DNA of 22,040 bases from a virus, in the IMG/VR virus record IMGVR_UViG_3300029267_003710, positions 1 to 22,040 of that record, one strand, 5' to 3'. Position numbers and translations under genes: made by a program. This document shows, piece by piece, positions 1 through 22,040 of the stretch. The number at the start of each line of letters is the position of its first letter. The first letter of the stretch is position 1. The notes beneath the pieces were generated by a model, which worked only from the letters and a program-made list of their open reading frames with translations, was not told the DNA's origin and made no database searches.

Positions 1-1
1 A

Positions 2-1437: not shown

Positions 1438-1448
1438 GGATAAAAAAG

Positions 1449-2240: not shown

Positions 2241-2242
2241 AA

Positions 2243-3046: not shown

Positions 3047-3056
3047 TGAGGCATAA

Positions 3057-6000
3057 ATGGCTGCTCCGCCTGCTCCTGTAATTACGTTACCGAATAGTGG
3101 CATAAATTTTTCGACGAATATTGCCCAGCAATCAGTTTCTGGGACCTGTGACGCTTCTACTCATGAAATTAGAGTAAATGGAAGTCCTGTTGGGGTTGAT
3201 TATACTCCTGGAGATACTGTTTGGTCATTCCCTGATAGAACTTTAGAATCAGGAGAGAATACCTTTTCTGTTACTGCTTTAAATGTCTCTATGGAAGAAA
3301 GTCTACCAGATACTATAACAATTACTCTTTTAGGTGACGATGAGCTTTCTTTGGTTGTTACTGCTCCAACTGGTATTTCAACTGAATCTAAGAAAGATTC
3401 AGTTACAGCCTCTTGGGTTAAGAATCCTGAGCCTCAAGTCGTGGGTTATAATCTTTATGGAAGTACTGATCCAGGAGGAGGCGTTACTGGTTATACACGT
3501 TTAAATGTGGATTATATTTCAAATCCATATAAATCGGAAGAGATAGAAACTCTATTAACTGAAGAGATAGAACAGGCTGGGACTATTAAAAAGGTTATAG
3601 ATACATATCAGATACAAACTCGGATCTATTATGCTTTTACCCAGACTTTAGATCCAACTACAGGGGAGTCGCTTCAAGCGGGTGTTAGAAGATATTTTGT
3701 AGCAACTGCTGTGGGTTTTGATCCAGTATTAAATGAAGAAGTGGAGAGTATTTATAGCGGAGAAGTCAGTGGATTACCTCAGTTAATTGATACTTCAATT
3801 AAAGATTTAGTGCCTAGGACTTCTTATGATGTTTCCATAAGTCAGATTACTAGAATTCAAGAAACAAATCCAAATGTTGATTTAAAGCCAGGCACAGTCA
3901 CCCGAGATGTGATGATTGACCCACCTTCTGAAGAATTTGAAAGACTTTATATTGTTCAAGATTTTGTTCATAGATCTCAAAGCTTTTTGACCCTCGTTGC
4001 TTTTGATGACGCAGATGGTGACGGTATTAGTGACCCGGTAGAAGATTCTCCCCAAAAACAAGCTTTAAAACAAGCTTTGTTTTTAGAGACCGATGAAGCC
4101 ACACAACAATTAATTGATGAGGCATTTACTAAATTAGCTGGAGACTTCAATGTAGAGCGTAAAGAAGCAACAGCTTCTCGGGGATCTTTAACTATTTATA
4201 CGTTATCATCAGCAGCTCCAACAAAAGATATTGTTGTTAATCAAGGAGCATTATTCTCAACGACTCCAGATTCTTCAACAAATACTCCGGCAATTTTATT
4301 TGTAGCTTTATCAGAGGCTCGGATTCGTGTTTCTTCTCTTTCCTTATTTTTTAATCCAAGAACAAATCGTTACGAAGTCACATTTCCGGTAGAAGCTCAA
4401 GAATCTGGAGCTTCTGGGAATGTTTCAGCGAATACTATTGTGAATATTGTGAGTGGTGTAAATGAACCGGCAGGTGTAACAAATGATCTTGCTTTTGCTT
4501 TTGGCACAGATCAAGAGAGTAATGTTAGTTTGGCAACACGTGCAATGTTAGCTTTTGTTTCTCTTGATACTGGAACAAAAGGTGGTTATCTCGCAACTGC
4601 TTTAGCTGTACCAAATGTTGTGCGTTCCCAGGTTATAGATGCTGGTAATACTTATATGGAGAGAGACTGGGATGAAGTTCGTTTAAAGCATATAGGAGGG
4701 AAGGTAGATGTTTATATTCAAGGTGAAGTAATAAATGAGATAACCGAAAGATTTGCTTTTCAATATCCGGAAATACAAGATGAGTTAGCTTCTGTTGAAA
4801 ATGTTGCAATGTTTCAATTTCGAGTTTTAAATACAGAAGTTACTGTAGAAACTCCTATTTTTGAAGTGACAAAAGTTCGGAATCTTACTCGTTTAAATGA
4901 TTATGATTTAACTGGTTATTCCATTGTAGATGGGGTAATCATAGATTTAGATGAAACGAACCCAGCAAATATTGCTATAGGCCTTGATAGTCTAGATACA
5001 ATAGAAGTTACATATAAATATGTACCAGTAGTCACACATATCTTTAATAATCAACCAATTATTGAGGTCACCGATGTAACAGGGGAAGTTTCTGGGGACC
5101 TTAATGATAATTATAATGTCTATAGAGAAGAAGATCCACTTTTGCTTGGAGATTCAACACAAGCCTCAGATTCTATTGAAATTTTTAAATATGGAAGCAA
5201 GCCTGTCGATTCTTTACAATCGACAACAGAGGATTTAGTTTTATCTGGAGAACAGGAGGTCGAATTAGCAAAGGTAGGAATTATAGAATCAACAATTGTT
5301 GTTAAAAATGAAGCACAGACTATTACATATACTAAAGATGTAGATTATTCAATTACTATTGGTACTTATGAAACAGCATCTTATATTAATCGTCTTGCGA
5401 GTGGTTCAATTGGGAGTGGTGATTTAGTAAAAGTCAGTTATCAAAGTGGTGAAAATGTTGTTGTTAAATATCTGCATAATTCTTTATTAGGGGAAGTACA
5501 GGAAGAAGTTAATGAAATGAAACATGTTACTGCAGATGTTTTGGTTAAGACTGCTCAGAAAAATGATACCACTATTGAAGCGATAGCAGTAATTGATAGT
5601 TCAGCTGACGAAGTAACTGTAGATCAAACTATACGTACAAGAATTTCACGTTATATGGCTAATTCGCCTATTGGTTTTTCTGTGCACCAAGGAGATATTA
5701 TAGCGATTATTGCAAATACATCAGGTGTTATTTATACTGTATTATCTCCTGGTTTAACAAAACTTGTTCGTTCAAATGACTCAAGAGTTTTCAGAGAGGA
5801 AGTAGCACCCACTTGGCAGTGGTATTATTTGGATCATGTTGATGTTTATATTACGTCTGTAGATGTTCTACAATATAATACGATTGATGGAGGGGGGCGA
5901 AAAAAGCAAATTGGAACTGGCCCTGGTTATATTTTTAGACATGTAGAAATATTTGAAGATAATGAACCTTTAACTATGGTAGATGCAGAGGCTGATGTTG

Positions 6001-6203
6001 GACGAGTTGCGGGTCAAGGTTTCATTAAGGGTGACGGTCGTTTATTAGTGAGTACTTTAGATGGCGCTTTGCCTAGTACCCACTCTTATAAAGTAACGTA
6101 TTATGTTTATAATGAAACAGGTGCTTATGATATACAAGCAGTTGACTTTGAATATTTGGCTCTTGGTGAACTAAACTTGACTTTGAGAGCGCAGTCTAGT
6201 TAA
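3057..6203 (+). CDS. Baseplate J-like (T4 gp6-like) wedge protein with N-terminal Ig/Fn3-like domains
   Basis: This 1048-residue protein has GTGAGG at 3046-3051 ahead of its ATG. Residues about 5-93 look like an Ig-like beta sandwich (PAPVITLPNSG ... ENTFSVTALN ... DTITITLLG). Residues about 100-240 are Fn3-like (SVTASWVKNPEPQVVGYNLY). DDADGDGISDPVED at 317-330 is a calcium-loop-like Asp cluster. Residues about 290-560 carry the J-like core: external-start phrase DIVVNQGALFST, the FGTDQESNVSLATRAMLAF helix, DTGTKGGYLATALAVPNVV, and HIGGKVDVYIQG. A second J-type segment follows (ADVLVKTAQ ... QTIRTRISRYM ... HQGDIIAIIANTSGVIYTVL), then a C-terminal beta region. J-like proteins join neighbouring wedges at the baseplate rim. 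Its stop overlaps the next ATG by one base. The core call is strong; the Ig/Fn3 calls are by strand pattern. Confidence 0.87.
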   Translation: MAAPPAPVITLPNSGINFSTNIAQQSVSGTCDASTHEIRVNGSPVGVDYTPGDTVWSFPDRTLESGENTFSVTALNVSMEESLPDTITITLLGDDELSLVVTAPTGISTESKKDSVTASWVKNPEPQVVGYNLYGSTDPGGGVTGYTRLNVDYISNPYKSEEIETLLTEEIEQAGTIKKVIDTYQIQTRIYYAFTQTLDPTTGESLQAGVRRYFVATAVGFDPVLNEEVESIYSGEVSGLPQLIDTSIKDLVPRTSYDVSISQITRIQETNPNVDLKPGTVTRDVMIDPPSEEFERLYIVQDFVHRSQSFLTLVAFDDADGDGISDPVEDSPQKQALKQALFLETDEATQQLIDEAFTKLAGDFNVERKEATASRGSLTIYTLSSAAPTKDIVVNQGALFSTTPDSSTNTPAILFVALSEARIRVSSLSLFFNPRTNRYEVTFPVEAQESGASGNVSANTIVNIVSGVNEPAGVTNDLAFAFGTDQESNVSLATRAMLAFVSLDTGTKGGYLATALAVPNVVRSQVIDAGNTYMERDWDEVRLKHIGGKVDVYIQGEVINEITERFAFQYPEIQDELASVENVAMFQFRVLNTEVTVETPIFEVTKVRNLTRLNDYDLTGYSIVDGVIIDLDETNPANIAIGLDSLDTIEVTYKYVPVVTHIFNNQPIIEVTDVTGEVSGDLNDNYNVYREEDPLLLGDSTQASDSIEIFKYGSKPVDSLQSTTEDLVLSGEQEVELAKVGIIESTIVVKNEAQTITYTKDVDYSITIGTYETASYINRLASGSIGSGDLVKVSYQSGENVVVKYLHNSLLGEVQEEVNEMKHVTADVLVKTAQKNDTTIEAIAVIDSSADEVTVDQTIRTRISRYMANSPIGFSVHQGDIIAIIANTSGVIYTVLSPGLTKLVRSNDSRVFREEVAPTWQWYYLDHVDVYITSVDVLQYNTIDGGGRKKQIGTGPGYIFRHVEIFEDNEPLTMVDAEADVGRVAGQGFIKGDGRLLVSTLDGALPSTHSYKVTYYVYNETGAYDIQAVDFEYLALGELNLTLRAQSS

Positions 6204-8314
6204 TGTCAAATTTACAGTTTAATGCCGAATTTTTTAGAGATGGGCAACAAAGAAGAGTTCTATTGTGGAATGAAACTAATACTGTTTTACAGAAACTTCT
6301 CAGTCAACTCCCAAGTAATTATATCTCAACAATACCTTCTACAAATTACGCTACTTTTCAAAAAGCAATTGCTGAAGAATCTGGTTTAGCCCGTATTACC
6401 CATGAAGACATACAGAATGACTTTTATTATGAAACAACACGATCTGCTTTTTTATATCAGGTTTTGGGTTACCTTTTACATGGTACTCAGGTAGAAAAGT
6501 TTTTCCCTCCGAATTATACTGATGAACAGTACCGCAATTTTTTAATTGCTCTAAAAACCGTACTATTTGGTGGAAGCCGCCCTAAAAATATAGAAACAGG
6601 AACTCAAATATTTACTGAGGTTCCAATAAGTGTTGTTGAGATCTTTAAATTAATACCTCCTTATGGTGATAGTCTTGCTTATGATATTTCAGATCAATTC
6701 GGTTGGTATTTTGAAATAGATGTTCCAGAAATTGGGCCGTTTGATTTGGCTGGGTTGGAAGGCGGTTTAAATTTCTTAGCAAAAATTATTAAACCTGCCC
6801 ATACTTGGTATGAATTACACCTTATTTATAGAGATACTTATTACACAACAGGTAAATGCATTACTCTTTTAGGTTCAACTGGTTATCTTTTAGCTGCCAG
6901 AATTGTCGTAGATAAAACTGCGGGCAGTGATCTAGTTTTAATAGATGGTGTTATAGAAAATTCAGTTCGTAATCGAATAACTTCTTTAACTGATCCATCT
7001 TTAAAAGTTGGTAATAATGTTAGAGTTGTAACAGATAGTAATACAACTTTTCGAGATAATATTGGTAATACCTTAACTTTTTCTGATTTAAATATTAATG
7101 ATCTTGTTTATGTTGAGGGTACAATAGTAGATGCTCCAATTAATGCTGATGGTTTTTATAACCAACTTAAAACTACACCGACAGCAATTTGTGATGTTGT
7201 AAAATCTGATCTTTTTGATTATGACTATGATGATGCCCGTAAGTGCTGCGAAGATCTTAGAGAATTAAAACATATTGTAGCTGAGGATATTACAGGTAAG
7301 AATTATACTCTAGATGCTTATCCGCCAAGTCGAACTTTCTATACTCAATTTGGCCCTTATACTGATTCATCTGGTAATTTGACTTATGATGTAAGTGATC
7401 TTACAGTTAAGGTGAATGGGATCCCTGTAGCTGTCCAACAAATCTTTCCTCAGATTGGTGTTATTTTGTTAACAGTAGCACCTTTGGCTGGTGCTACAGT
7501 AACTGTCACTTATTACTATTTTGAAGAACCTTATTTACATATGGCCCTAAATACATTTGGTTCTCTTTTAAATGACTATCATAATGATATGATCGGGAGA
7601 CTTCCACAGAACACTGTTTTATATCCTGCTCCATTTACTACATGCGACCCAATACAGATTACCTATGATTATAAAGGTTTTGAATTAGCCTATTCGGCAG
7701 TTTTAAATGATAATATAAAGTATTCATTACTATTGAATGATACAAGCCGTTTAAATGTTAATGGGAGTACATTAAATCATTATAATGTTATAGATAGTCG
7801 ATCTCCGATCATCAAATATGGGGCTGATTGGGTAGGGCCTCCAGATATTCATTTTTTATCTGGAACTACGACATTACCTCCGGATACGCCTTTAATGAAA
7901 CTTACAATGGATGTAATTACTGCTCAAATAGAATATTCAATAATTCCAGGAGATAGTGATGTTTTAAATTCTTTGACTGATTTACTTAATTCTTTAGCTT
8001 TACCTTTCAGATTGAATTATGTAAGCTACAATGTTATCAATAGTTTTAGATATGCTATATATACATGTATGTCGGAGTTTTTAGAAACTACCACTTCTGG
8101 AACTGGAGGCTATCTTTCGATTGCTTGTGACAATAGATTAGATATTTCTTTAAGCGGTGATTTCCTAAGTGATACTTATAGCGGTATGACAGATACAAGT
8201 TGTGGTATTTCGTTACAAGGCTTTGAGTGTAATGACCAAGCATGTCATCTGAATGAAGATGATAATGAACGTGATAGAGTTGGGCCAATAGGTGTTTTAC
8301 TGTTAGGACCTTAA
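6203..8314 (+). CDS. Large baseplate protein, gpI-like N-terminus with long beta-rich extension
   Basis: This 703-residue protein is coupled to the J-like gene by a TAATG overlap. The N-terminal 210 residues resemble the P2 gpI type baseplate-fibre adaptor: a helical start, then FLIALKTVLFGGSRPKNIETG at about 113-133, and a closing LAKIIKPAHTWYELHLIYRD at about 190-210. The remaining 490 residues are an extension. One OB-like beta segment lies near 240-310 (GNNVRVVTDSNTTFRDNIGN). A second beta domain near 395-435 ends GATVTVTYYYFEEP, a strand pattern also used in the fibre proteins downstream. The C-terminus is Cys-rich (TSCGIS, FECNDQACHLNEDD) and may bind metal or form disulfides. Position after J supports the I-type role, which is to attach fibres to the wedge. 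gpI itself is about 180 residues, so this is far longer, and the extension is unassigned. Confidence 0.7.
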   Translation: MSNLQFNAEFFRDGQQRRVLLWNETNTVLQKLLSQLPSNYISTIPSTNYATFQKAIAEESGLARITHEDIQNDFYYETTRSAFLYQVLGYLLHGTQVEKFFPPNYTDEQYRNFLIALKTVLFGGSRPKNIETGTQIFTEVPISVVEIFKLIPPYGDSLAYDISDQFGWYFEIDVPEIGPFDLAGLEGGLNFLAKIIKPAHTWYELHLIYRDTYYTTGKCITLLGSTGYLLAARIVVDKTAGSDLVLIDGVIENSVRNRITSLTDPSLKVGNNVRVVTDSNTTFRDNIGNTLTFSDLNINDLVYVEGTIVDAPINADGFYNQLKTTPTAICDVVKSDLFDYDYDDARKCCEDLRELKHIVAEDITGKNYTLDAYPPSRTFYTQFGPYTDSSGNLTYDVSDLTVKVNGIPVAVQQIFPQIGVILLTVAPLAGATVTVTYYYFEEPYLHMALNTFGSLLNDYHNDMIGRLPQNTVLYPAPFTTCDPIQITYDYKGFELAYSAVLNDNIKYSLLLNDTSRLNVNGSTLNHYNVIDSRSPIIKYGADWVGPPDIHFLSGTTTLPPDTPLMKLTMDVITAQIEYSIIPGDSDVLNSLTDLLNSLALPFRLNYVSYNVINSFRYAIYTCMSEFLETTTSGTGGYLSIACDNRLDISLSGDFLSDTYSGMTDTSCGISLQGFECNDQACHLNEDDNERDRVGPIGVLLLGP

Positions 8315-8405
8315 AATAGTTCACTAATACATCTGAATTAAAGTTATGCGATTCGAAGATACTTATAAAATCAGGAGAAATGTAGATCAATTTAGAGGAT
8401 CTGAA
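8315..8405. other. Short leader between the I-like gene and the next virion gene
   Basis: This 91-base stretch is one of only two sizeable gaps in the array. If the downstream gene starts at 8346 rather than 8406, two thirds of it is coding. The 20 extra residues then begin MRFEDTYKI, which parallels MRFNEEYRV after the 8406 start. I see no hairpin with a T tract and no convincing promoter. Confidence 0.4.
8394..8399 (+). promoter_or_regulatory. Shine-Dalgarno site (AGAGGA) favouring the 8406 start
   Basis: AGAGGA sits 6 bases before the ATG at 8406. The alternative in-frame ATG at 8346 has only AT-rich sequence before it and no SD match, so 8406 is preferred. Confidence 0.6.
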
Positions 8406-8954
8406 ATGAGATTTAATGAGGAATATAGAGTACCTAAACAAATCACGGGACATGTCTGGGCTACTCTGCGACATATTGATGGGTCCGAAGAAAAGTTTGA
8501 TTTTGGTAATCTGGTTATAAATGATGCAAGTATTTTAGTAGCGAGATTGCTATCAGATAAGAATGATCCAGTTTGGGGCATAAAGTTTTTGGCTGTGGGC
8601 AGCGGCGATGCTACCTGGCCAGACCCGCCTCCTAGCCCAACAGGAGCAGAACATGGCCTAATTAGTGAAATAGCTAGAAAAACATTCTCTTCGGTAAATT
8701 TTATAGATGGTTCCGGAGCTGTTACGACAACGCCAACTAATGTAGTTGATTATGTGACAATTTTTAATCAGGGAGAGGCTGGGCCTGCGGCGCTTCGCGA
8801 AATGGGACTGGTAGGTGGAGACGCGATTTCGACCCCAGTTGCCTTTGCAAATGGTGGGAAGAATACAGATGTGTTTTTCAATCTTAGGCGATTTTCTGTG
8901 ATAAATGTTCCGGCAACTGGCACCTTAACGCTTGTTTGGCGTATAACAACATGA
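8406..8954 (+). CDS. Small virion/tail-fibre associated protein
   Basis: This is a 182-residue protein from the ATG at 8406, or 202 residues if the SD-less ATG at 8346 is used. It has the plan of a common phage structural family: GHVWATLRHIDGSEEKFDFG, NLVINDASILVARLL, then GIKFLAVGSGDATWPDPPPS with a helix start GLISEIARKTF, and a closing beta domain ending TGTLTLVWRITT. Proteins of this pattern are usually found among baseplate and fibre genes of large phages, with no established biochemical role. Its stop overlaps the next start (ATGA), so it is coupled to the HNH gene that follows. The virion call is by pattern and neighbourhood; the fibre association is inference. Confidence 0.65.
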   Translation: MRFNEEYRVPKQITGHVWATLRHIDGSEEKFDFGNLVINDASILVARLLSDKNDPVWGIKFLAVGSGDATWPDPPPSPTGAEHGLISEIARKTFSSVNFIDGSGAVTTTPTNVVDYVTIFNQGEAGPAALREMGLVGGDAISTPVAFANGGKNTDVFFNLRRFSVINVPATGTLTLVWRITT

Positions 8955-10537
8955 CTAAAAGAATTTGCTATTACTGTGAGCAAGTTTTTGAAGTCCAAGA
9001 GAGAAAGACTGGAATTTTTGTTTGTGATATCTGTAAAAAACAAAGATCTCTTAAACCTAGAACTTGCGCTATTTGTAAAGAAATCTATTATTTAGAAAAA
9101 TCTCCGAGGGGTAGAGTTTTTTATTGTTCAAATTGCAAAACAAAAAAAGATTCACATTTTCGTACATGCAAAGGATGTGATGAATTAAAAGAATTTACAA
9201 AAGATCCTTGGGATCGAGGATATTGTTATTCATGTAAAAAAAGTTGGGATTATGGAGAATACATTGTTTGTCCTTTGTGTTTTAATGAATGTAATGATGA
9301 AATCTATTCAAGACAAAAACATATAACACCCCGCCATTTAAAACTCCATAATTATACGATAGAGCAATTTAAAAAGGAGTTTCCAGGTTTAGATAAAAAT
9401 ACTTTTTGGAAGTATCTTGGTAAACGAAAACTTACTGCTATTCCAACAGATAGTGATAGAAATTATAGAGTAATTGAGTGTTTTGTCGAAGATTGTTTTT
9501 GGAATGGAAAAACGAGTTATGTTCGTCATCTCTATAAAGAAGCAGAAGGCCGTTTTGCTGTGAATAAAAAACATCAAGATTTTATTGATTATATTATAGA
9601 TCTCTATACTAAACAGAACTGGACAAAATCGATGTTAATCAAAGAGTTTAAATTTATTCCAGACGAAATTTTTAGAAGGGAAGGTATTCCTTTTAAAACT
9701 CGTAAAGAAACAGCACAGGATGTTCTCAAACATGGAAATAATCCGATGCAAAATCAAGAGATCATCGATAAGTTAACTTTGGAGAATTGGCAACCTTTAG
9801 ATGAACCTAAAATTAGGAAATGTAAACGTTGTGGAGATGATATTTTAGTCTATCAGAAATGTTCAAGTAAATCTTATTGTGACAAGTGCGCAGAAGAGAA
9901 ATATAGAGAACGCTATGAAGAAGGATTAAGGAAAGGAAAGGAAAGCCGCCATAAAGAACTCGAAATTGAAATAAATGGAGAAATATTTTTTAAAGACCAG
10001 TGTCCCCGTTGTGGAAAAGAAACACTTGTTGAGTCTCTACATATTCACCATAAGTATTGTTTTGAATGTTTTGAAGAATTTAGAGCCCCAAAACATCCGC
10101 TACTTTTTCTTTATAACATGTATTTCAGGGCATGCTTTAATTGTGGACAATTTATAAATATGCAAAATAGAAGCAAGTACGCTACTTATCTTTATTGTCA
10201 TAAATGTTATGTAGAGAGTGAAGAAGCGAAACCTATTTCTCGTGGACCTAATTGGGGTAAACAGCAACAGAAGGCTTTAGAAAGGGATAATTGCACTTGT
10301 CAGAATCCTGGATGTGGTAAGACAAAATCTAATTTAGGTTGTAATCCTTCAGTCCATCATATTACTCCGTTTAGAAAGTTTGGTTACAAACCAGGAGAAA
10401 ACATGAGTTATATTCAAGCAAATGATCTAAATAATCTTATTTGTTACTGCAATACTTGTCATGGTAAGTTTGAAAATAAACCAGATATTTGTAAACAACA
10501 TCTTGAACAATCTCAGTTATTAACAGGAGCGACATAA
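8951..10537 (+). CDS. HNH endonuclease with multiple zinc ribbons (homing-type)
   Basis: This 528-residue protein starts at an ATG overlapping the previous stop (ATGA); an in-frame TTG at 8936 is less likely. Zinc-ribbon Cys pairs occur at C6/C9 with C25/C28, C39/C42 with C59/C62, C73/C76 with C92/C95, and again at about 291-313, 351-373 and 395-419. Residues 107-146 (CPLC ... TPRHLKLHNYTIEQFKKEFPG) resemble a ROS/MucR-like DNA-binding finger. Residues 225-275 (SMLIKEFKFIPDEIFRREGI, then KHGNNPMQNQEI) look like the modular DNA-binding segments of phage homing nucleases. The C-terminal HNH domain spans about 431-512: C450 and C455, the HHITPF pair H469-H470, Asn in NDLNNLICYC, and C503-H504. 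All key residues are present. It probably nicks or cuts DNA at a specific site and spreads itself. It interrupts an otherwise structural array. Confidence 0.87.
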   Translation: MTKRICYYCEQVFEVQERKTGIFVCDICKKQRSLKPRTCAICKEIYYLEKSPRGRVFYCSNCKTKKDSHFRTCKGCDELKEFTKDPWDRGYCYSCKKSWDYGEYIVCPLCFNECNDEIYSRQKHITPRHLKLHNYTIEQFKKEFPGLDKNTFWKYLGKRKLTAIPTDSDRNYRVIECFVEDCFWNGKTSYVRHLYKEAEGRFAVNKKHQDFIDYIIDLYTKQNWTKSMLIKEFKFIPDEIFRREGIPFKTRKETAQDVLKHGNNPMQNQEIIDKLTLENWQPLDEPKIRKCKRCGDDILVYQKCSSKSYCDKCAEEKYRERYEEGLRKGKESRHKELEIEINGEIFFKDQCPRCGKETLVESLHIHHKYCFECFEEFRAPKHPLLFLYNMYFRACFNCGQFINMQNRSKYATYLYCHKCYVESEEAKPISRGPNWGKQQQKALERDNCTCQNPGCGKTKSNLGCNPSVHHITPFRKFGYKPGENMSYIQANDLNNLICYCNTCHGKFENKPDICKQHLEQSQLLTGAT

Positions 10538-10541
10538 CCAC

Positions 10542-10781
10542 ATGAATGCTCTTAAAGTTAAGAACTGCAAATTAACAAATAGAGAAGCACAAGAATATAA
10601 GATTTTGTTTAAGATAGATAGAGATGGGAATCTCGACCCTAGAGATGTTAAACTATTACAGAAAGAAAATAATTCTTTTGTGGAAGTTCCTTATCTTAAG
10701 GCTCTTTCATTAACTGTTCATCGAGATTATGTAGATTTTCATATTGATCAAAGACGAATGGTTGAATCAACCTGGAGGTAG
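10542..10781 (+). CDS. Small uncharacterised protein
   Basis: This 79-residue protein starts at an ATG 12 bases after AGGAG (10525-10529) and 4 bases past the HNH stop. It is charged and has no membrane segment. It contains KIDRDGNLDPRDVKLL, which superficially recalls an EF-hand-like Asp loop, but one loop alone is not evidence of calcium binding. I do not recognise the family. It could be cargo carried with the HNH gene or a small member of the fibre operon. Tight spacing to both neighbours (2 bases to the next start) and a uniform frame support it as a real gene. Confidence 0.55.
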   Translation: MNALKVKNCKLTNREAQEYKILFKIDRDGNLDPRDVKLLQKENNSFVEVPYLKALSLTVHRDYVDFHIDQRRMVESTWR

Positions 10782-10783
10782 TA

Positions 10784-10984
10784 ATGAATTTACCACAAGA
10801 TGGTACAGCAAGTGGAACTCAAGGTGGTTGGCCCCAAACTCAGATAGATGCTATAGTTTCTGGGGCTGATATGAGAGATTTTTATAATAAAACTACTGGA
10901 TCTAATTGGCGAAATTCATCTGGATATTTGCTTGATTATAAAGTAAATTATCTTTTAACTGGAGTAAATGTAACAGCTTATTAA
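10784..10984 (+). CDS. Small uncharacterised protein, possible minor virion component
   Basis: This 66-residue protein has GGAGG at 10774-10778, 5 bases before the ATG, a strong initiation site. The sequence is polar and Gly/Thr/Asn-rich at the N-terminus (DGTASGTQGGWPQTQIDAIV), with a Tyr/Leu-rich end (GYLLDYKVNYLLTGVNVTAY). There is no signal peptide or transmembrane segment. The composition resembles fibre or structural proteins more than the HNH gene upstream, and it lies 12 bases before the first large fibre gene. Function unknown. Confidence 0.55.
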   Translation: MNLPQDGTASGTQGGWPQTQIDAIVSGADMRDFYNKTTGSNWRNSSGYLLDYKVNYLLTGVNVTAY

Positions 10985-10996
10985 AAGAGGTAAAAA

Positions 10997-13900
10997 ATGG
11001 CTCTCGATTATGGAAGTCAAGTAAGCAGGACATTACAACCAGATGATCGGAATTTTCTCGATGTTGTCTGGGACAAGGGCAAACCGCCTTTGGATAGTGA
11101 ATTAACTTTAATGTCGGATATTCGAGATGTTCAATCTCGACGGGCAAATATTAAACTACAGTCTGGTGTTTTAAACTTTCGTTTATCTGGTTTTGATGAA
11201 CTCTATAAAGGGACAACTGATATAGTTTTTCCTTCTGCATTTCTTGGTGAAAATGAATTTATTATTCAGAATTTCAGAGCAATTGTAAATGGTTGGGTTT
11301 TAGATCTTATCGATAGTTCAGTCGAGGGCGGTAATTTTACTACAGATGGTTGGATTTCGGTAGAGATGCCGACTCCGCCAGCTGCTGGTCAAAGACAAGA
11401 TCTTATTTTCCTAGAAGTATATAGAGTATTAATTAGACCTAATTCAACAGTTAATAAGCCGGCAGTTGACAAGATCTATAAGTATGGTAATACTCAATAT
11501 CGTGGAACTCAATTGACAGATGATATGGAAGATCCGTCTGTAGGTGTTGAAACTACTCAGAGAGTTCAACTACAATTTCGACTTAGAACTGTTTCTGGTG
11601 TTAACTTTACTAATTATCCAGAAGGTGTTGATGACCCAACTGTAAAAGCACGTGGTCCAAATACTGGAGATACTTCTTATACCTATACAAATCAAGGTTC
11701 TACTTCAAATGATCATGGTCTTTTTAGAGCAGGGAATGGTGACTCAACTTCTCGCAGTGTTCTTGGAACAGTAGACGGTTATATTTATGCAATTCCTGTT
11801 TTAGGAGTACATCGCAGAAACTCAACTGCTTATAATGTTCACACTAACCCGAATGGGTCAGGAGTTAGTGTAGGAGATAGCACTAAGAGTGATAGACCTG
11901 ATGGTATGTTTAATGACGAAATTAATGAAAAGGATATCATAGATCTTCGGCATTTGGTTTTAGATTGTGAATGTAGTCTTTCTGAAATGGTGAATTTAAA
12001 TTTTGATCAACTTCTTCGAGGACAAAATCAAAATTCTTGGGGCAATGATTATGTTGGGGCACAGAAGGGTACAAAATTACTTCAGGTTGACGGCATAAGT
12101 GCTGTGGATCAACCAGGTATTTATGATTTTGCAGCTCCTGATGGTTTTAGACGAATGTTTACAGATAAAACTATCACTCAAACTATTCCATTTTCATTTC
12201 TTGAAAATGCCGATAGCACTTTTACAAATGCTTATATTACTTTTGCTTACCAGACAGTCCTAAAAAATATAACAATAACTTCGATTGCTCCGAATACAAT
12301 TCCGGGCACAGGAGTAGTCTTAGTTTGGAGATCTACAGGAAATACGGTTGCAACTTTAGGCTGGCATGTCGTTAGTAATTACCAAATTTGGGCGACAATT
12401 GATGTAGCTGACCCTAATTATATAGCCGGAGGACGCATTGACGCAGTTTTTTATCTGATATGGACTCATGTAGTAGGAAACCAAGGAGATGGTTTTAGAC
12501 ATGTACCAAATCATCTTTACTATACATTTAATGCGAATATAGCCCAGAATGAAAGAATGGGTTTTAGTTATATAGAACTTGAAAAGCGGACTGTAGGTCT
12601 TTTTGAGACAACTCTATCAGCCTTCCCTTCTATAGGAGGTAATCAGGATTATATTGAAGATATTAATCCTGCTGCAAATCAAACAAGTTATTTTAGTACG
12701 CAGAAAGGAGCTTTGCGAGTTTATAATGGTTTTATGCAAGGGAACGGGACAGCTACTTATAACTTCCCATCTACATTAGCCGGATTTGCTATTACAGGTT
12801 TCTATAGATTTTGGAATTATACTGATCCACTAAATCCAGTTCAGATACATCCTAGTAGTGTTACAAGAGCAGTTGGAAGTTACACTGTAATTTTTGGGCA
12901 GGTTTTTACCACAAATCAAGTAATTAAATATGAAGCTACTCTTAGAATTAAAAGCCTTACAATAGAAAGACATGCAAAAGGCATAGTTGAATCCTATGCG
13001 GCGGCAACTGAATCAATGGCAGGTACAGGTGCAAGTAATTATACTGTTACATCTTCATCTGGGGAGATTATACATAAAATGGGAGTTTATGAAGACTTAT
13101 TAGGAGAAAAAAATTATGCCTATGTTAATGGACTTCGTAGACAGATAACAGTAAATTATGGGGAAGGTACCGGGGCTGTTAGTGTTGCTTTTCCTGTTGC
13201 TCCAGGTGCAGCTGATACAATAATCTTTGAGTTTGTTTCAACTTATACTCCCACTGCAAGTGATCGCCTGCAGATTTATTATGAATATGACCCATATCAA
13301 GGTCTTGGTCTGGACATTGATGAAGCTGTTATTAAACAAATTTCTCAAAAAGGCATAATGCATTCTATTGGTACGGGGGGCAATAGTTGGGTATCTCTTC
13401 CTTTTCCTCTTTCATCTCAGGTTGGTTATACTGATATTGAGATATCTTCAATATCTGCAAAATTACCTTTAAATGGAAATTATTATGATGCTGACCTCGA
13501 TATGACTGCTGTCGCTGTCGTTGATTCAGCAATGCCTACTGGTTTAAGACGTTTAGATTTATATGAATCAATTAAGCAAGCATCTGTCATATATTCAAGG
13601 CCGACTACAGGTGCTCCGCCCTTAAGTTCTACTTATACTGCTTACACTCATACCTATGAAGGCTTAAAATTAAGAGTTACAACACCTTCTGGTTCTTATT
13701 CAGTTCCAGTTCCTCAAAGGGGCCTAAGTGATGCCCTAACTGTAGACAAAGGAACTGGTGTGATTGACCCTTATTTCTTTCAATACTCAAACCCAACACC
13801 TGATGCCCCTTATCCGGCTGTTGTCCAGTATGTGCATTGGTTTATCATTAGCTTGCCGCCTGAAAATGAGTTATATTTGTTTATTTTGACTGATACCAAA

Positions 13901-14005
13901 ACTGGAGGCACTATTGGTTCAGCTTATTCTGATTATTCGATTACTGGTTTAACCGCTTATGATGTTTTTCGTTTACGCTATAGACCTTTATTGAGCAGAA
14001 GATGA
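10997..14005 (+). CDS. Large tail-fibre / virion structural protein
   Basis: This 1002-residue protein starts at an ATG with AGAGG 6 bases upstream. Residues 20-42 (FLDVVWDKGKPPLDSELTLM, then SDI) form an N-terminal motif that reappears in the next gene, probably the baseplate-attachment end. Around residues 255-325 comes a section with the features YAIPVLGVHRRNSTAY, DRPDGMFND and DIIDLRHLVL, seen in phage fibre proteins that list a parameter domain before the shaft. The rest is beta-rich and Tyr/Thr/Asn-heavy. A module near residues 690-770 contains YAYVNGLRRQ and ends DRLQIYYEYDPY, like the beta domains in the J-like and I-like genes. No enzymatic motif is visible. Length, composition and position after the baseplate genes support a fibre. 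The receptor-binding part is probably in the C-terminal half; this is inference. Confidence 0.72.
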   Translation: MALDYGSQVSRTLQPDDRNFLDVVWDKGKPPLDSELTLMSDIRDVQSRRANIKLQSGVLNFRLSGFDELYKGTTDIVFPSAFLGENEFIIQNFRAIVNGWVLDLIDSSVEGGNFTTDGWISVEMPTPPAAGQRQDLIFLEVYRVLIRPNSTVNKPAVDKIYKYGNTQYRGTQLTDDMEDPSVGVETTQRVQLQFRLRTVSGVNFTNYPEGVDDPTVKARGPNTGDTSYTYTNQGSTSNDHGLFRAGNGDSTSRSVLGTVDGYIYAIPVLGVHRRNSTAYNVHTNPNGSGVSVGDSTKSDRPDGMFNDEINEKDIIDLRHLVLDCECSLSEMVNLNFDQLLRGQNQNSWGNDYVGAQKGTKLLQVDGISAVDQPGIYDFAAPDGFRRMFTDKTITQTIPFSFLENADSTFTNAYITFAYQTVLKNITITSIAPNTIPGTGVVLVWRSTGNTVATLGWHVVSNYQIWATIDVADPNYIAGGRIDAVFYLIWTHVVGNQGDGFRHVPNHLYYTFNANIAQNERMGFSYIELEKRTVGLFETTLSAFPSIGGNQDYIEDINPAANQTSYFSTQKGALRVYNGFMQGNGTATYNFPSTLAGFAITGFYRFWNYTDPLNPVQIHPSSVTRAVGSYTVIFGQVFTTNQVIKYEATLRIKSLTIERHAKGIVESYAAATESMAGTGASNYTVTSSSGEIIHKMGVYEDLLGEKNYAYVNGLRRQITVNYGEGTGAVSVAFPVAPGAADTIIFEFVSTYTPTASDRLQIYYEYDPYQGLGLDIDEAVIKQISQKGIMHSIGTGGNSWVSLPFPLSSQVGYTDIEISSISAKLPLNGNYYDADLDMTAVAVVDSAMPTGLRRLDLYESIKQASVIYSRPTTGAPPLSSTYTAYTHTYEGLKLRVTTPSGSYSVPVPQRGLSDALTVDKGTGVIDPYFFQYSNPTPDAPYPAVVQYVHWFIISLPPENELYLFILTDTKTGGTIGSAYSDYSITGLTAYDVFRLRYRPLLSRR

Positions 14006-14007
14006 TC

Positions 14008-14013
14008 AAGGAG
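14008..14013 (+). promoter_or_regulatory. Shine-Dalgarno site (AAGGAG) for a GTG start
   Basis: AAGGAG lies 7 bases before the GTG at 14021 and decides that start. The ATG at 14031 is out of frame. Confidence 0.75.
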
Positions 14014-14020
14014 ATCTGAA

Positions 14021-16282
14021 GTGAGCAGTAATGTTTCGAGAGATACGTTTATCCCATCACGGGGTTATCAAGAACTAATATTCAGTCAAAATAGGCCAGT
14101 TCTTGATGCTGAGCTGAATGAATGGCAAGATGTTTATCGTCGGCGTGAAGAATTAATTGAAAAATCAGGTATAGGTAATGGAGCAATTGGCGATGGTTTT
14201 TTATCTCTTTCATCCGGTAGCCCAAATTCTCTTTTAATTTATCAAGGTACTTATTATAATGAAGGTCGAGAGTTAACACTATTCAGTAATGTCTTAATTA
14301 CAGGTTTAACGACTCCTGGGGCTAATAGAACTGATTATGTTTATATAGAGTATTATGATACAGAGATTGATGGCACAGTTGACCCAAATATTATTGATCC
14401 TGTAATAGGTATTGAGACTGCTTGTCGTAAAAAGACTGTAATTAATGTAAGAGTTGCTGAAGGGACAGCAATCCCTCAACCAGCTGCCGGCAGAGTTCAT
14501 GTACAAATAGCTACACTTAGTAGAACAGCTGGCAATCCAAATATAACCTCAACGATGATAACTGATGACCGGAAAAAAGCCTCACGCAATTTTGTAATAT
14601 CAGGTTTAAGGCCTTCACATACGGGAGGTTTGGCCTATGCAATGACTTTAGGCTCTTGTTTTGTAGCAGACACAAAATATACATTAGGATCTTTTGCTGG
14701 GGCGGTACCTGCTGCTTCAACGCGATATCTTTATATAGACAATGCTGGAACTTTACAATTAGCTGCGACTCTACCTACGACATTTAATACTCCGCTAGCT
14801 AAATTTGTTTCAAATGCTACAACTATAACCTCGCTTACAGACCTTAGAATGTTTAGTAATTTAGCTACTGATACTCCTAGAATTGATGTTTCAATTAATA
14901 TAGACGGTTCCTTTAAGGATGATACGGTAACTCTGGGTAATATTAAGATTTTAAGGCCGCATCAGCAAACTACTCCAAATATGACCGTTTATGTAGAAGC
15001 GGGAACATACATTTCGTCAAATGGTCAAAAAGCAATTACATATGCTGGTGGCTCAAGTCCTGTTTTTGCTTTGCCTGTAGGCAATCCTAAGATTGATTTA
15101 TTAACGATTGATGACTGGGGCAATCTTGCAATTACACCTGGTATTCCAGGAGCTATTCCAGTTGCTCCTGTTTACCCAACTGATAAACAAGTTATTGCAG
15201 AAGTTACTGTAAATCCAGGCGATACACAAATATTAGATTCTCAAATTAGAGATGTTCGGGGTTTTCTTAATTTGGGTGGAGGTTTAGGTGTTCAAATTAA
15301 TCGAGATGACTTTGCGTCCGCAGCTGGTCAGCAAATCTTCTCTTTTACTTTTACATATACCCCAGGTACAGATGATCTTTTAGTTTTTAGTGCTGGGCAA
15401 CTTCAAACAAATAATTTAGATTATTTAGAGTCTTCCTCTAATACTATTACATTTATTCATGGAAGAGTTGCAGGTGAAAGAGTTAGTGCTATTCGGATTT
15501 CGGGAGGCGGTGGCCCAGGTGCCGGAGCACCCCAGCTTTATCAAAGATTTACAGCAACTGCGGGCCAGACAATTTTAAATATTACCTCTGGAAGTTATAC
15601 TCCAGGAAATGATTCATTACGTGTTTTTAAAAATGGCAAAAAATTAACTCTTCCAAATGATTATACAGAACCTTCTACAACACAGGTAATTTTGGCAGTC
15701 CCAGCAGCTGCCGGAGCTATTTATGAACTTATAGTTGAGGGTGGTACTGGGACAAGTCCAACTGCGAATGAACCCAGAAGTGTTCCAGTATCATCTTTTT
15801 CTGCGGATCCTTCTGCTTCCCCTACAGCCGGGATTATTTCAGGAGCTGTTTCTGGTGTTGTAGCTATAGATTCTATAGATTTTTCTCCGACTGCTACACA
15901 GAGAATTCGCTTTTCAATACCTGCTCCTCGAGATATACACTTAGGTGGTGTTTATGGGGTTTCTCTTCAGTTTTGGATTGCCTCTGGTTTAACTGCCCAA
16001 CCTGCGGCGGGTATATTTGTTCGTGTACACTATGCTGTTTTAGATGACGGTGAAAATGTTATAACCGGGGGTAATAGATCCACAGTAACAACTGCCGTAA
16101 CTCCTTTTGGGGCCTCAGCAAATACAGTAGAATATGTAAATCTTGCATTAGTCCCAACTCACTTTACTAGTAATACTACATTTATAGCATTTGAATTTGA
16201 GAGAGATGTAATAGATCTCAGTGATACTTATAATGATGTTATGCGGTTATGCGACGTTAGATTTAAATATGTTTCCGCGTAG
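14021..16282 (+). CDS. Tail-fibre protein with attachment motif, tandem beta modules and C-terminal sandwich
   Basis: This 753-residue protein begins at GTG. Residues 16-38 (YQELIFSQNRPVLDAELNEW, then QDV) match the N-terminal motif of the preceding fibre gene. Residues about 319-416 form a module shared with the gene at 17570: NMTVYVEAGTYIS ... IDLLTIDDWGNLAITPGIPG ... PTDKQVIAEVTV ... QIRDVRGFL. Then two tandem copies of one beta module follow, at about 427-495 (TYTPGTDDLLVFSAGQLQTN) and 505-573 (SYTPGNDSLRVFKNGKKLTL). A Gly/Pro linker joins them. The C-terminal beta sandwich (about 620-753) opens TQRIRFSIPAPRDIHLGG and closes DTYNDVMRLCDVRFKY, again parallel to the 17570 gene. This is a mosaic fibre built from reused parts. 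Receptor binding by the last domain is inferred. Confidence 0.77.
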   Translation: MSSNVSRDTFIPSRGYQELIFSQNRPVLDAELNEWQDVYRRREELIEKSGIGNGAIGDGFLSLSSGSPNSLLIYQGTYYNEGRELTLFSNVLITGLTTPGANRTDYVYIEYYDTEIDGTVDPNIIDPVIGIETACRKKTVINVRVAEGTAIPQPAAGRVHVQIATLSRTAGNPNITSTMITDDRKKASRNFVISGLRPSHTGGLAYAMTLGSCFVADTKYTLGSFAGAVPAASTRYLYIDNAGTLQLAATLPTTFNTPLAKFVSNATTITSLTDLRMFSNLATDTPRIDVSINIDGSFKDDTVTLGNIKILRPHQQTTPNMTVYVEAGTYISSNGQKAITYAGGSSPVFALPVGNPKIDLLTIDDWGNLAITPGIPGAIPVAPVYPTDKQVIAEVTVNPGDTQILDSQIRDVRGFLNLGGGLGVQINRDDFASAAGQQIFSFTFTYTPGTDDLLVFSAGQLQTNNLDYLESSSNTITFIHGRVAGERVSAIRISGGGGPGAGAPQLYQRFTATAGQTILNITSGSYTPGNDSLRVFKNGKKLTLPNDYTEPSTTQVILAVPAAAGAIYELIVEGGTGTSPTANEPRSVPVSSFSADPSASPTAGIISGAVSGVVAIDSIDFSPTATQRIRFSIPAPRDIHLGGVYGVSLQFWIASGLTAQPAAGIFVRVHYAVLDDGENVITGGNRSTVTTAVTPFGASANTVEYVNLALVPTHFTSNTTFIAFEFERDVIDLSDTYNDVMRLCDVRFKYVSA

Positions 16283-19323: not shown

Positions 19324-19391
19324 TCTCACTCATTTTGTGAATTATCCTTATCTAAAACGCATGATTTTTGTTGTGTCTTTGTAAAATAATT
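19324..19391. other. Gap between fibre cluster and glycosyltransferase pair
   Basis: This is 68 AT-rich bases. A TAAAAT at 19382-19387 could serve as a -10 box, but no good -35 box lies 16-18 bases upstream. A 4-bp TCAC/GTGA inverted repeat near 19327-19341 is too weak for a terminator. No Shine-Dalgarno match precedes the ATG at 19392. Confidence 0.4.
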
Positions 19392-20489
19392 ATGAAAATA
19401 ACTTTCTTTATTAGTGATTGGGGAGGTTGTGGTTATTACCGTTGTGTTGTTCCTGCTCAATATTTAATTCAAAATGGTGTTGAATTTAAAATACACACAG
19501 AGTATAAAAGAGAACACATCGATCAAAATGATATTATAATTCTTCAACGTCAATTTGACCCTAATGTTCTTTCTTGGCAAAAATATGCTCAGGATCAAGG
19601 TATTAAAGTAATCTCTGAATGTGATGATGATATTTTTCATGTACCTCCTTGGAACCCCACTAAAGAGCATTGGAGATCTGTTCGTAAAGTCTCTGCTGAA
19701 ATTTTAAAGAGAAGCGATTTAATAACTGTAACAAATAAGGCTTTAAAAAAAGAATTTTCGAAACATAATTCGAATATCTCTATTTTAGAAAATTGTATTG
19801 ATTTCAAAGTTGTATCTCAATTAGAAAAGAAAGATTATTATAAACAAATTATTGAACTCGAACACAATCCAATGAGAAGAAAACCTCTTTTGGTTAGTAA
19901 AATTATTAATGAGAAAAAAGAACTCGGTAAAATTAATATTGGTTGGGCAGGTAGCTTTACACATGAACGGGACTTATTTATTCTTAGAGAAGTTTTACCT
20001 ATAATTTGTAGAAATAATCCAAGAGTTATGATTTATATGGCTGGCTTTACTTTAAGGGAATTAATCGAGAAAATTCCTTCTCATCAGTTGCGTTTGATAG
20101 AAGGTGTTGATACTCCGAAATATTTGCCTTTGTTATTTGCTTTAAATCTTGATATAGGTCTTTGCCCAATTGAAGAACACCTCTTTAATGAAGGTAAGAG
20201 TAATCTTAAAGCTTTAGAATACTTAAGTGCTAAGATTGTACCTGTTGCTAGTAATTTTGGTAGTTATAAAGAAACACTCAAAGACTATGAAACAGGTTTT
20301 TTATGCTCTACAAATCCTAAGCATTGGGTCAAACGAATACAGGAGTTAATTGATTCATATTCTCTTCGAAATAGAATGGCTGAAACCGGTTACAATTTTG
20401 TAAAGAAAGACTATAATATTGTATATAATTGGAAGAAATGGAAAGAATCTTATGAGCAAGTGTTAAATGGCTCAAGTAGTATTTTTTAA
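19392..20489 (+). CDS. GT-B type glycosyltransferase (first of a tandem pair)
   Basis: This 365-residue protein is taken from the ATG at 19392; an in-frame TTG at 19368 would add eight residues ahead of the conserved start. The N-terminal half opens with a strand and GCGYYR at 12-17, then ISECDDDIFHVPPW at 74-87. The C-terminal half holds the nucleotide-sugar domain: INIGWAGSFTHERDL at 181-195 and EHLFNEGKSNLKALEYLSAK at 262-281, the latter in the place of the GT4 E-x7-E loop, followed by VASNFGSYKE. This is the GT-B two-domain plan. The sugar and acceptor cannot be read from the sequence. Coming straight after fibre genes, it may glycosylate virion proteins or alter host surface sugars; that is inference. 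It overlaps its paralogue by 23 bases. Confidence 0.82.
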   Translation: MKITFFISDWGGCGYYRCVVPAQYLIQNGVEFKIHTEYKREHIDQNDIIILQRQFDPNVLSWQKYAQDQGIKVISECDDDIFHVPPWNPTKEHWRSVRKVSAEILKRSDLITVTNKALKKEFSKHNSNISILENCIDFKVVSQLEKKDYYKQIIELEHNPMRRKPLLVSKIINEKKELGKINIGWAGSFTHERDLFILREVLPIICRNNPRVMIYMAGFTLRELIEKIPSHQLRLIEGVDTPKYLPLLFALNLDIGLCPIEEHLFNEGKSNLKALEYLSAKIVPVASNFGSYKETLKDYETGFLCSTNPKHWVKRIQELIDSYSLRNRMAETGYNFVKKDYNIVYNWKKWKESYEQVLNGSSSIF

Positions 20490-21471
20490 ATCAGATAGTA
20501 CGGGTTGTGGTTATTATAGATCTGATTTACCTGCGAAGGTTTTGAAAGATCATGGTATCTCATCGGAAGTTCGTTTTATTAAGCCTACTTTTAGAGCATA
20601 TCCTGAAACTAAAGTTATTTTTGTCCAGCGTCATTATATTTTTATTGATGTTCCTGCTTTACTTCGTAAATTTAAAAGACGAGGTTTGAAGATAGTTTAT
20701 GATTTGGACGATGACTTTTTTAATTTAACTCCAGAAATCAATCTTTATCGTATAAGAGAAAATTTATTAAAAGAGATCCGAACTCTAGCTTCTTTTGCAG
20801 ATATAATGACAGTTTCAACTCCTCAGTTGAAGGAATTATCAAAACAGATTTTTGATCAAGAAATTGTTGTTATTCCTAATATGCTTGATCTTTCAATTTG
20901 GAAACCTAATAAAACAAAGGATGATGGTAGAATACGCATTGGTTGGGCAGGATCACCTACCCACCACAGAGATTTAATGTCGATTTATCCAGTTTTAAAA
21001 AGAATTTTGAACGAATGTAATAATGTTGATTTAGTCTTTTTTGGTTATTGCCCAAAAGATTTTTTAAAATTTGGTGAAAGAGTTTCATTTATTAAAGGTG
21101 GATCTTATGACTATTATGTAAATACTTTACCTGATTTAGGTATTGATATTGGGGTTATTCCTGTTATTGATTCAGCATTTAATAAATCGAAGAGTTTAAT
21201 TAAATTTGCAGAATATTGTGCTTTAGGGTTGCCTTGCGTTATATCAAATTTACCGCCATACCATGAAATTGCTGGAGATAGCAGAGATTTTCTTGTTTCT
21301 ACTGAGCAAGATTGGTATAAAAAGTTAATACTTTTAATTCGAGATTTAGACCTTCGAAAGACAGTTTCTAAATTGAATTTAGTTATTGCTAAACAGTTTA
21401 GTGCAGAAACTAAAGGGAATCTTTGGCATTCTTTAATCAACGCAATCCAAACCAATAAAATCACTAAATAG
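20467..21471 (+). CDS. GT-B type glycosyltransferase (second of a tandem pair)
   Basis: This 334-residue paralogue of the preceding enzyme keeps every landmark: TGCGYYRSDLPAKVL at 12-26, IVYDLDDDFFNLTPE at 77-90, IRIGWAGSPTHHRDL at 156-170, and FNKSKSLIKFAEYCALGLPC at 238-257, then VISNLPPYHE. The two are clearly diverged, so this is an old duplication, or acquisition of two relatives, rather than a recent copy. The start lies inside the previous gene with no clear SD, which points to translational coupling. It ends with TAG at 21471, 8 bases into the convergent tnpB. Both nucleotide-binding and acceptor halves are complete, so it should be active. Substrates are unknown. Confidence 0.82.
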   Translation: MAQVVFFKSDSTGCGYYRSDLPAKVLKDHGISSEVRFIKPTFRAYPETKVIFVQRHYIFIDVPALLRKFKRRGLKIVYDLDDDFFNLTPEINLYRIRENLLKEIRTLASFADIMTVSTPQLKELSKQIFDQEIVVIPNMLDLSIWKPNKTKDDGRIRIGWAGSPTHHRDLMSIYPVLKRILNECNNVDLVFFGYCPKDFLKFGERVSFIKGGSYDYYVNTLPDLGIDIGVIPVIDSAFNKSKSLIKFAEYCALGLPCVISNLPPYHEIAGDSRDFLVSTEQDWYKKLILLIRDLDLRKTVSKLNLVIAKQFSAETKGNLWHSLINAIQTNKITK

Positions 21472-22040
21472 CATTCAGTAACTTTATTAAATTTGATTTA
21501 TCAGGGTAAACCCTAATAGGGTGAAGCGCAGCACCCTCTATCACCTCCGATCTTGGCTTAACGCCACTATCTTTGATGACTACTTTAGAATCTGAACCAG
21601 TCTTGGTGACTACTTTCTTAGCTATATTCAAACTACCATTAACATCTGAGTTAATCTTAACACCCTTGGATGATTTGAAGAGGCCTCTAGTGATTCTTTT
21701 GCCTAGATAAGTTTTATGTTTACAAACTTCTTCATTGTCAAGAAAGCTACACTTGCTAGTATAACTCTCTTCATTTGTGATTACTCTAATATTGACCTCT
21801 TCTGATTTGTATTTCAGCATATTGATTAACTTAGTAAATGGTATTTGAACAAAGTTTTGATTGTTGATATGGCCTAAGTTAACCTCAGTCTTCCATTGTT
21901 TGTTGTGACCAATTATGATTGTATCGATATTATTGTCTATACAATAATTAACGATAAACCTACTTGTTTTATGGAGATAATCATTGATTCGGTTATTTCT
22001 TTTAAAAGTGATTTGTCTGATTTGTTTAGATGACTTTTTA
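21464..22040 (-). CDS. tnpB: TnpB (IS200/IS605 OrfB) RNA-guided nuclease, C-terminal part (N-terminus beyond right edge)
   Basis: The minus-strand frame is open from the right edge to a TAG at 21464-21466, giving 191 C-terminal residues; the ATG at 21820 is internal. Recognisable TnpB segments in order: NRINDYLHKTSRFIVNYC, then DTIIIGHNKQWK, NNQNFVQIPF, MLKYKSEEVNIRVITNEESY, TSKCSFLDNE, Y-x-GKRITRGLFKSSKG, and INSDVNGSLNIAKK. The Asp of NSDVNGS (codon 21644-21646) is the RuvC-III aspartate. The usual CxxC...CxxC zinc finger is replaced by the SFLDNE...RGLF form seen in one TnpB branch. The Gly in IIIGHN stands where most TnpBs have the RuvC-II Glu. TnpB cuts DNA matching an omega-RNA made from the element's 3' end and helps the transposon persist. 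No tnpA lies in the window. The first RuvC Asp is outside it. Confidence 0.92.
   Translation of the reverse strand, partial: KKSSKQIRQITFKRNNRINDYLHKTSRFIVNYCIDNNIDTIIIGHNKQWKTEVNLGHINNQNFVQIPFTKLINMLKYKSEEVNIRVITNEESYTSKCSFLDNEEVCKHKTYLGKRITRGLFKSSKGVKINSDVNGSLNIAKKVVTKTGSDSKVVIKDSGVKPRSEVIEGAALHPIRVYPDKSNLIKLLNAI
21503..21537 (-). ncRNA. Putative omega-RNA stem region at the 3' end of tnpB
   Basis: Read on the minus strand, AGGGTG pairs with CACCCT (21532-21537 with 21518-21523, 8-base loop). An adjacent AGGGT/ACCCT pair (21510-21514 with 21503-21507) uses complementary units of the same sequence, so alternative or pseudoknotted pairings are possible. TnpB omega-RNAs are known to come from the 3' end of tnpB and the transposon right end. 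The boundaries of any transcript cannot be set from sequence alone, and this stretch also codes the TnpB C-terminus. Confidence 0.35.

What the first reader, a model, noticed from the sequence alone, without database searches (positions are those of the whole stretch)
21464..21545. Nested GGGT/ACCC repeats inside the tnpB 3' end, with the guide expected to read into the glycosyltransferase gene
Seen: complementary units alternate AGGGT-ACCCT-AGGGT-CACCCT at 21503-21537, able to form two competing or pseudoknotted stems within the coding sequence of the TnpB C-terminus. Known: TnpB guide RNAs run from the tnpB 3' end through the element's right end, and the bases just outside become the guide. 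Inference: on the minus strand the guide would come from sequence at or past 21471, the 3' end of the second glycosyltransferase gene. The nuclease would then cut relatives lacking the insertion at that gene, favouring spread of the element and the flanking fibre/glycosyltransferase region.
Basis: partly seen in the sequence, partly recalled or inferred. Interest (0 to 1): 0.6.

Follow-up and report, generated by a model that had tools for sequence, protein, structure and literature searches.

The report
TnpB guide-RNA scaffold inside coding sequence
The repeats are hairpins of the guide-RNA scaffold of a phage-borne TnpB nuclease, encoded inside the nuclease's own gene and running into the end of the neighbouring sugar-transferase gene; this is a new example of a known kind of selfish element.

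Summary
The GGGT/ACCC units exist at the stated coordinates. On the minus strand they form two tandem hairpins inside the tnpB frame (HP1 21519-21536, HP2 21499-21518). About 60 TnpB relatives carry HP1 at the homologous codons, most followed by HP2. HP1 covaries even at amino-acid level (90 of 93 cells paired, against 62 for synonymous redraws). Covariance models trained without the window pick this site as their best match in the 22 kb (34 bits). Relatives show a third hairpin just before the guide. In the window an uninterrupted 18-bp hairpin (21452-21490, minus strand only) sits there; it is the longest in the contig and runs through the stop codon and last codons of the glycosyltransferase. 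This three-hairpin plan is the published one for 'Derived' TnpBs. Many relatives lie beside a serine recombinase, as in IS607 elements. The 'competing or pseudoknotted' pairing is not conserved. The element's right end is unresolved: about 21441-21448 (hairpin 3), 21468 (covariance model) or 21475. No empty site was found. Cutting and homing remain inference.

The parts
21464..22040 (-). C-terminal 191 aa of TnpB, cut by the contig end; RuvC-II Glu codon 21767-21769, RuvC-III NSDVN 21638-21652
   Evidence: Pfam OrfB_IS605 1.9e-7 and Cas12f1-like_TNB 6.2e-11; NCBIfam guided_TnpB 6.6e-25, below its whole-protein cut-off, the fragment being truncated; E91 and D132 invariant in 13 aligned sequences
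21519..21536 (-). Hairpin 1 of the guide-RNA scaffold (GGGTG..CACCC), codons (E)GAALHP
   Evidence: ungapped covariation: 90/93 cells paired vs synonymous redraw mean 62, max 74; helix 1 89% paired
21499..21518 (-). Hairpin 2 (TATTAGGG-TTTA-CCCTGATA, 8 bp)
   Evidence: window z -4.7 for the 30 nt after HP1; 63 sequences mean z -1.85; 66/70 cells paired in an ungapped clade, 0 of 2000 shuffles
21448..21495 (-). Hairpin 3 candidate: uninterrupted 18-bp stem 21452-21490 (loop GCT), extended to 21448-21495; overlaps the stop and last codons of the glycosyltransferase
   Evidence: longest uninterrupted hairpin on either strand of the window; the 35-nt core folds at -11.6 kcal/mol on the minus strand and 0.0 on the plus strand; relatives have a hairpin 5-8 nt before their right end
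21441..21476 (-). Zone of the element's right end and guide start: about 21441-21448 (hairpin 3), 21468 (covariance models and CTAT motif) or 21475 (ACTG motif)
21421..21474 (-). Expected guide segment (16-20 nt starting 3' of whichever right end is correct), antisense to the 3' end of the glycosyltransferase gene
   Evidence: inference from TnpB biology (PMC10097598, PMC10278001) and the right-end candidates; the 20-mers for 21475 and 21468 each occur once in the window
20467..21471 (+). Second glycosyltransferase gene, convergent with and overlapping the tnpB 3' end by 8 bp
   Evidence: PHROG 7162 glycosyltransferase 2.5e-41, residues 5-300 of 334; ORF list

Best explanation
The repeats are hairpins 1 and 2 of the guide RNA (omegaRNA) of a phage-borne TnpB of the 'Derived' type, probably from an IS607-like element. 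The tnpB message, read on the minus strand, carries the scaffold inside its last codons: HP1, HP2, then a third hairpin close to the guide. Bases beyond the right end, antisense to the 3' end of the glycosyltransferase gene, become the guide. Shown here: the TnpB fragment, the covarying hairpins in relatives, their presence at homologous codons in the window, and strand asymmetry. Inferred: that the 18-bp hairpin over the glycosyltransferase stop codon is hairpin 3, that the right end is about 21441-21448, that the RNA is made and processed, and that the nuclease cuts the uninterrupted gene in co-infecting relatives so that repair copies the element in. The stated confidence is for the scaffold-and-guide identity, not for the exact right end or for homing.
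For: TnpB domains. RuvC-II Glu and RuvC-III Asp conserved. HP1 pairing at fixed columns with no pairing used for selection: 95/108 cells vs shuffle mean 65, max 80; 90/93 vs synonymous redraw max 74 and codon redeal max 70. HP2. Three helices on an unfitted MAFFT alignment: covariation score 0.314 vs shuffled 0.161, 0/500, and at most 0.190 when slid. Models trained without the window find this site first. HP3 mean z -2.75 in 30 relatives, sense more stable than antisense in 25/28. Window HP3; minus versus plus strand. Serine recombinase (Pfam Resolvase) just upstream in relatives. Published plan: Derived TnpBs (RuvC-III NADxN) have two 5' stem-loops and a 3' stem-loop, and almost all omegaRNAs have a hairpin within 10 nt of the scaffold's 3' end (PMC10278001).
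Against: tnpB is cut by the contig end, so RuvC-I, tnpA, the left end and the TAM cannot be seen. The window's right end does not match the relatives' AACTAT motif well (best 3.7 and 3.1 bits vs training minimum 7.4). The covariance models place the end at 21468 with hairpin 3 partly broken, against the 18-bp hairpin. Nearest relatives are at most about 62% identical over the aligned part, and the window sits on its own weakly placed branch. No empty site and no RNA data.
Confidence: 0.85

Rival explanations
1. Same element, but the right end is at 21468 (...GAATGCTAT) or 21475 (...GTTACTGA): the element starts at or just after the glycosyltransferase stop codon, and the 18-bp hairpin is an accident that pairs the scaffold tail with the guide.
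For: Both covariance models end at 21468; motif scores 3.7 bits (21475) and 3.1 bits (21468) are the best two of the region.
Against: Leaves no stable hairpin within 10 nt of the guide, unlike the relatives and the published rule (PMC10278001); it would make the longest hairpin of the contig a coincidence and the guide self-paired.
Confidence: 0.38
2. The 3' hairpin is a transcription terminator between two convergent genes, native to the phage and unrelated to the element.
For: It lies between convergent stop codons.
Against: No U-tract and no terminator call; the core has no structure on the plus strand (0.0 kcal/mol) and -11.6 on the minus strand; position and order match hairpin 3 of the relatives.
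Confidence: 0.12
3. A decayed or domesticated TnpB: the protein or guide no longer cuts, and the hairpins are remnants or serve regulation (as in phage-encoded TldR repressors, PMC13418256).
For: The right-end motif is poorly preserved; RuvC-I and tnpA are not visible; the tnpB frame runs 55 nt past HP1, farther than in most relatives.
Against: Frame open over 191 aa, RuvC-II Glu and RuvC-III Asp kept, HP1 and HP2 fully paired.
Confidence: 0.15
4. The repeats are only a by-product of the protein motif E-G-x-x-x-H-P-x-R, with no RNA role.
For: The motif fixes some GG and CC bases.
Against: Synonymous redraws of the same peptides pair far less (mean 62, max 74, observed 90 of 93), and residues change in matched pairs: V..H, L..N, F..S, AV..Q, AV..P, I/T..Y.
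Confidence: 0.02

Closest known systems
omegaRNA of 'Derived' TnpBs (Nety et al. 2023, PMC10278001)
   Same: RuvC-III of NADxN type (here NSDVN); two 5' stem-loops plus a 3' stem-loop near the guide
   Different: Published model rests on 16 orthologs and was not compared base by base here; in this locus the two 5' hairpins lie wholly inside the open frame and hairpin 3 may overlap a neighbouring gene; activity untested
IS607-family elements (serine recombinase tnpA plus tnpB; PMC6188088)
   Same: Many relatives have a Resolvase-domain gene directly upstream of tnpB; relatives' flanks diverge right after ACTAT
   Different: tnpA and left end lie outside this contig, so membership of this copy is untested
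ISDra2 TnpB-omegaRNA (IS200/IS605; PMC10097598)
   Same: omegaRNA overlaps the tnpB 3' end and runs to the guide at the right end
   Different: There the functional parts of gene and RNA hardly overlap; here conserved paired bases constrain C-terminal residues of the protein
RAGATH-18-derived guide RNAs of IS607 TnpBs (PMC11061315)
   Same: IS607-associated TnpB with its guide RNA 3' of the gene
   Different: Those RNAs are independent of the coding sequence; no Rfam family matches here or in 11 relatives

Membership tests
TnpB RNA-guided nuclease | OrfB/TnpB domains with RuvC catalytic D-E-D | tested here: inconclusive
   Domains met; RuvC-II Glu and RuvC-III Asp conserved; RuvC-I lies outside the contig
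Derived TnpB clade | RuvC-III motif NADxN | tested here: met
   Window has NSDVN, relatives NADVN/NADLN/NSDIN at the same columns; definition from PMC10278001; Ser for Ala is a small departure
Derived TnpB omegaRNA | Two 5' stem-loops conserved by covariation | tested here: met
   HP1 and HP2, present in the window
Derived TnpB omegaRNA | 3' stem-loop within about 10 nt of the guide | tested here: inconclusive
   Present in relatives; in the window an 18-bp hairpin fits but the right end is not fixed
IS607 element | Serine recombinase tnpA beside tnpB | not testable with these tools
   Contig ends inside tnpB; met in relatives
IS607/IS605 element | Defined ends shown by an empty site | tested here: inconclusive
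   No relative with the site in IMG/VR; the near-identical contig L018 ends at window 15848
omegaRNA in Rfam | Match to a curated RNA family | tested here: not met
   No meaningful match

The most novel reading that the evidence does not exclude
A phage TnpB element whose terminal guide-RNA hairpin is read on one strand while its complement encodes the last codons and stop of a glycosyltransferase on the other, so one stretch serves two convergent proteins and an RNA, and the guide aims at the uninterrupted glycosyltransferase gene of rival phages.
Probability: 0.4. Interest if true: 0.6.

Novelty: new member of a known kind. Interest (0 to 1): 0.42.

Why it matters
It turns a sequence curiosity into a testable guide-RNA annotation for a large, mostly viral branch of TnpBs with no Rfam family, and shows amino acids near a protein's C-terminus changing in matched pairs to preserve an RNA hairpin. 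If the guide works, it is a concrete case of a homing-like nuclease aimed at a phage glycosyltransferase gene.

Tried and rejected
Close TnpB relatives by exact peptides in IMG/VR: none; exact repeat pattern: none. EGAALHPI back-translated pattern: two unrelated hits. The near-identical phage contig L018 does not reach the site. Glycosyltransferase and junction patterns: no empty site. Empty sites for TnpB-bearing named phages (L005, L007, L008): none in the phage collection. A pseudoknot between ATAG before HP1 and CTAT at the right end was considered: ATAG varies in some relatives (L077, L080) while the right end does not, so it is not claimed. Cross-pairing of the inner repeat units: not conserved. 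Rfam: no family. Terminator: not supported. My first right-end estimate by motif alone (21468/21475) was downgraded after finding hairpin 3.

Full report
What is there. The window is a 22,040-base virus record with tail, baseplate and fibre-like genes, two glycosyltransferase genes on the plus strand (19368-20489, 20467-21471) and, convergent on the minus strand, the last 191 residues of a TnpB protein cut off by the contig end.

Relatives. TnpB relatives were collected from phage and plasmid records, bacterial genomes and IMG/VR by an alignment-based scan (80 loci). The best are about 62% identical over the aligned part, and the window sits on its own poorly placed branch. Many relatives have an IS607-type serine recombinase directly upstream (Pfam Resolvase); others stand alone. 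Synergistes elements end in GTAACTAT or ATAACTAT, after which the flanks differ from locus to locus, which fixes their right ends.

Hairpin 1. At fixed columns, chosen by a sequence anchor and not by pairing, 95 of 108 cells pair, against a shuffle mean of 65 and maximum of 80. In the in-frame subset 90 of 93 pair, against at most 74 in 2000 synonymous redraws of the same peptides and at most 70 when the codon before Pro is redealt. The residues change in matched pairs (GV..H, GL..N, GF..S, AV..Q, AV..P, GI/GT..Y), so the RNA stem constrains the protein. Related sequences are not independent, so these counts are not probabilities.

Hairpin 2. The 30 bases after hairpin 1 fold better than shuffles in 63 sequences (mean z -1.85, t -7.9; window -4.7). 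In a clade with fixed geometry 66 of 70 cells pair and none of 2000 shuffles reach this.

Hairpin 3. Most of 30 relatives have a hairpin ending 5-8 bases before their right end (mean z -2.75), more stable on the sense strand in 25 of 28. On an alignment made without structure the three helices score 0.314 for covariation against 0.161 for shuffles and at most 0.190 when slid. On the model-fitted alignment, which leans towards the structure, 82% of cells pair.

The window against the models. Two covariance models trained without the window pick 21468-21542, minus strand, as the best match in 22 kb (32.1 bits; 34.1 bits; the runner-up scores 19.5). HP1 and HP2 fit; the models end at a CTAT at 21468 with hairpin 3 partly broken. 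Free folding finds an uninterrupted 18-bp hairpin at 21452-21490, the longest on either strand of the window; its 35-base core folds at -11.6 kcal/mol on the minus strand and not at all on the plus strand. The whole stretch has z -4.8 on the minus strand and -1.2 on the plus strand. The published rule that almost every omegaRNA has a hairpin within 10 nt of its 3' end (PMC10278001) favours this hairpin as the true third one. The right end would then be about 21441-21448, and the last 7-9 codons and stop of the glycosyltransferase would be element sequence. I give this about 50%, 21468 about 25%, 21475 about 13%, elsewhere the rest. In each named case the guide is antisense to the 3' end of the glycosyltransferase gene.

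Mechanism. From established TnpB work (PMC10097598, PMC10278001, and a plasmid gene-drive study, PMC11870625) the expected path is: tnpB mRNA is trimmed to the scaffold plus about 16 guide bases; the complex cuts DNA that matches the guide beside a TAM; a copy carrying the element lacks the contiguous site and is spared; repair from it copies the element. None of these steps is shown here. Co-transfer of the flanking fibre and glycosyltransferase region is a plausible side effect of repair and is untested.

Comparison. The three-hairpin plan with a RuvC-III of NADxN type (here NSDVN) matches the published Derived TnpB clade. It differs from ISDra2, where functional parts of gene and RNA barely overlap, and from RAGATH-18 systems, whose RNA is separate from the coding sequence. 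No Rfam family covers it. The finding is therefore a new member of a known kind, with an unusually tight overlap of reading frame, RNA and neighbouring gene.

Noticed in passing
8936-10537 (+): A 533-aa protein with HNH endonuclease matches (PHROG 8446 1.8e-15) and several Cys-rich zinc-finger-like blocks sits among tail genes; a second candidate homing nuclease in the same contig.
   Followed up: no
L018 (IMGVR_UViG_3300017987_000345): A second IMG/VR contig is 99.994% identical to window 1-15848 and extends the phage upstream, but stops before the glycosyltransferase and tnpB region.
   Followed up: partly
12141-12238 (-): Weak second match to the omegaRNA model (19.5 bits, E 0.076) antisense inside a tail-region gene; probably chance.
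   Followed up: no
L065, L068, L070: Viral tnpB frames interrupted by in-frame TAG codons, which would fit phages that reassign TAG; not checked further.
   Followed up: no
L007 (Bacillus phage G): Search with the tnpB region returned three places within the phage G record itself, so some sequence of this region is repeated in that genome.
   Followed up: no
L104 and L108: Two near-identical TnpB genes on one viral contig (3300010167_000012) have different 3' flanks after hairpin 2, a natural pair for studying right-end change.
   Followed up: no
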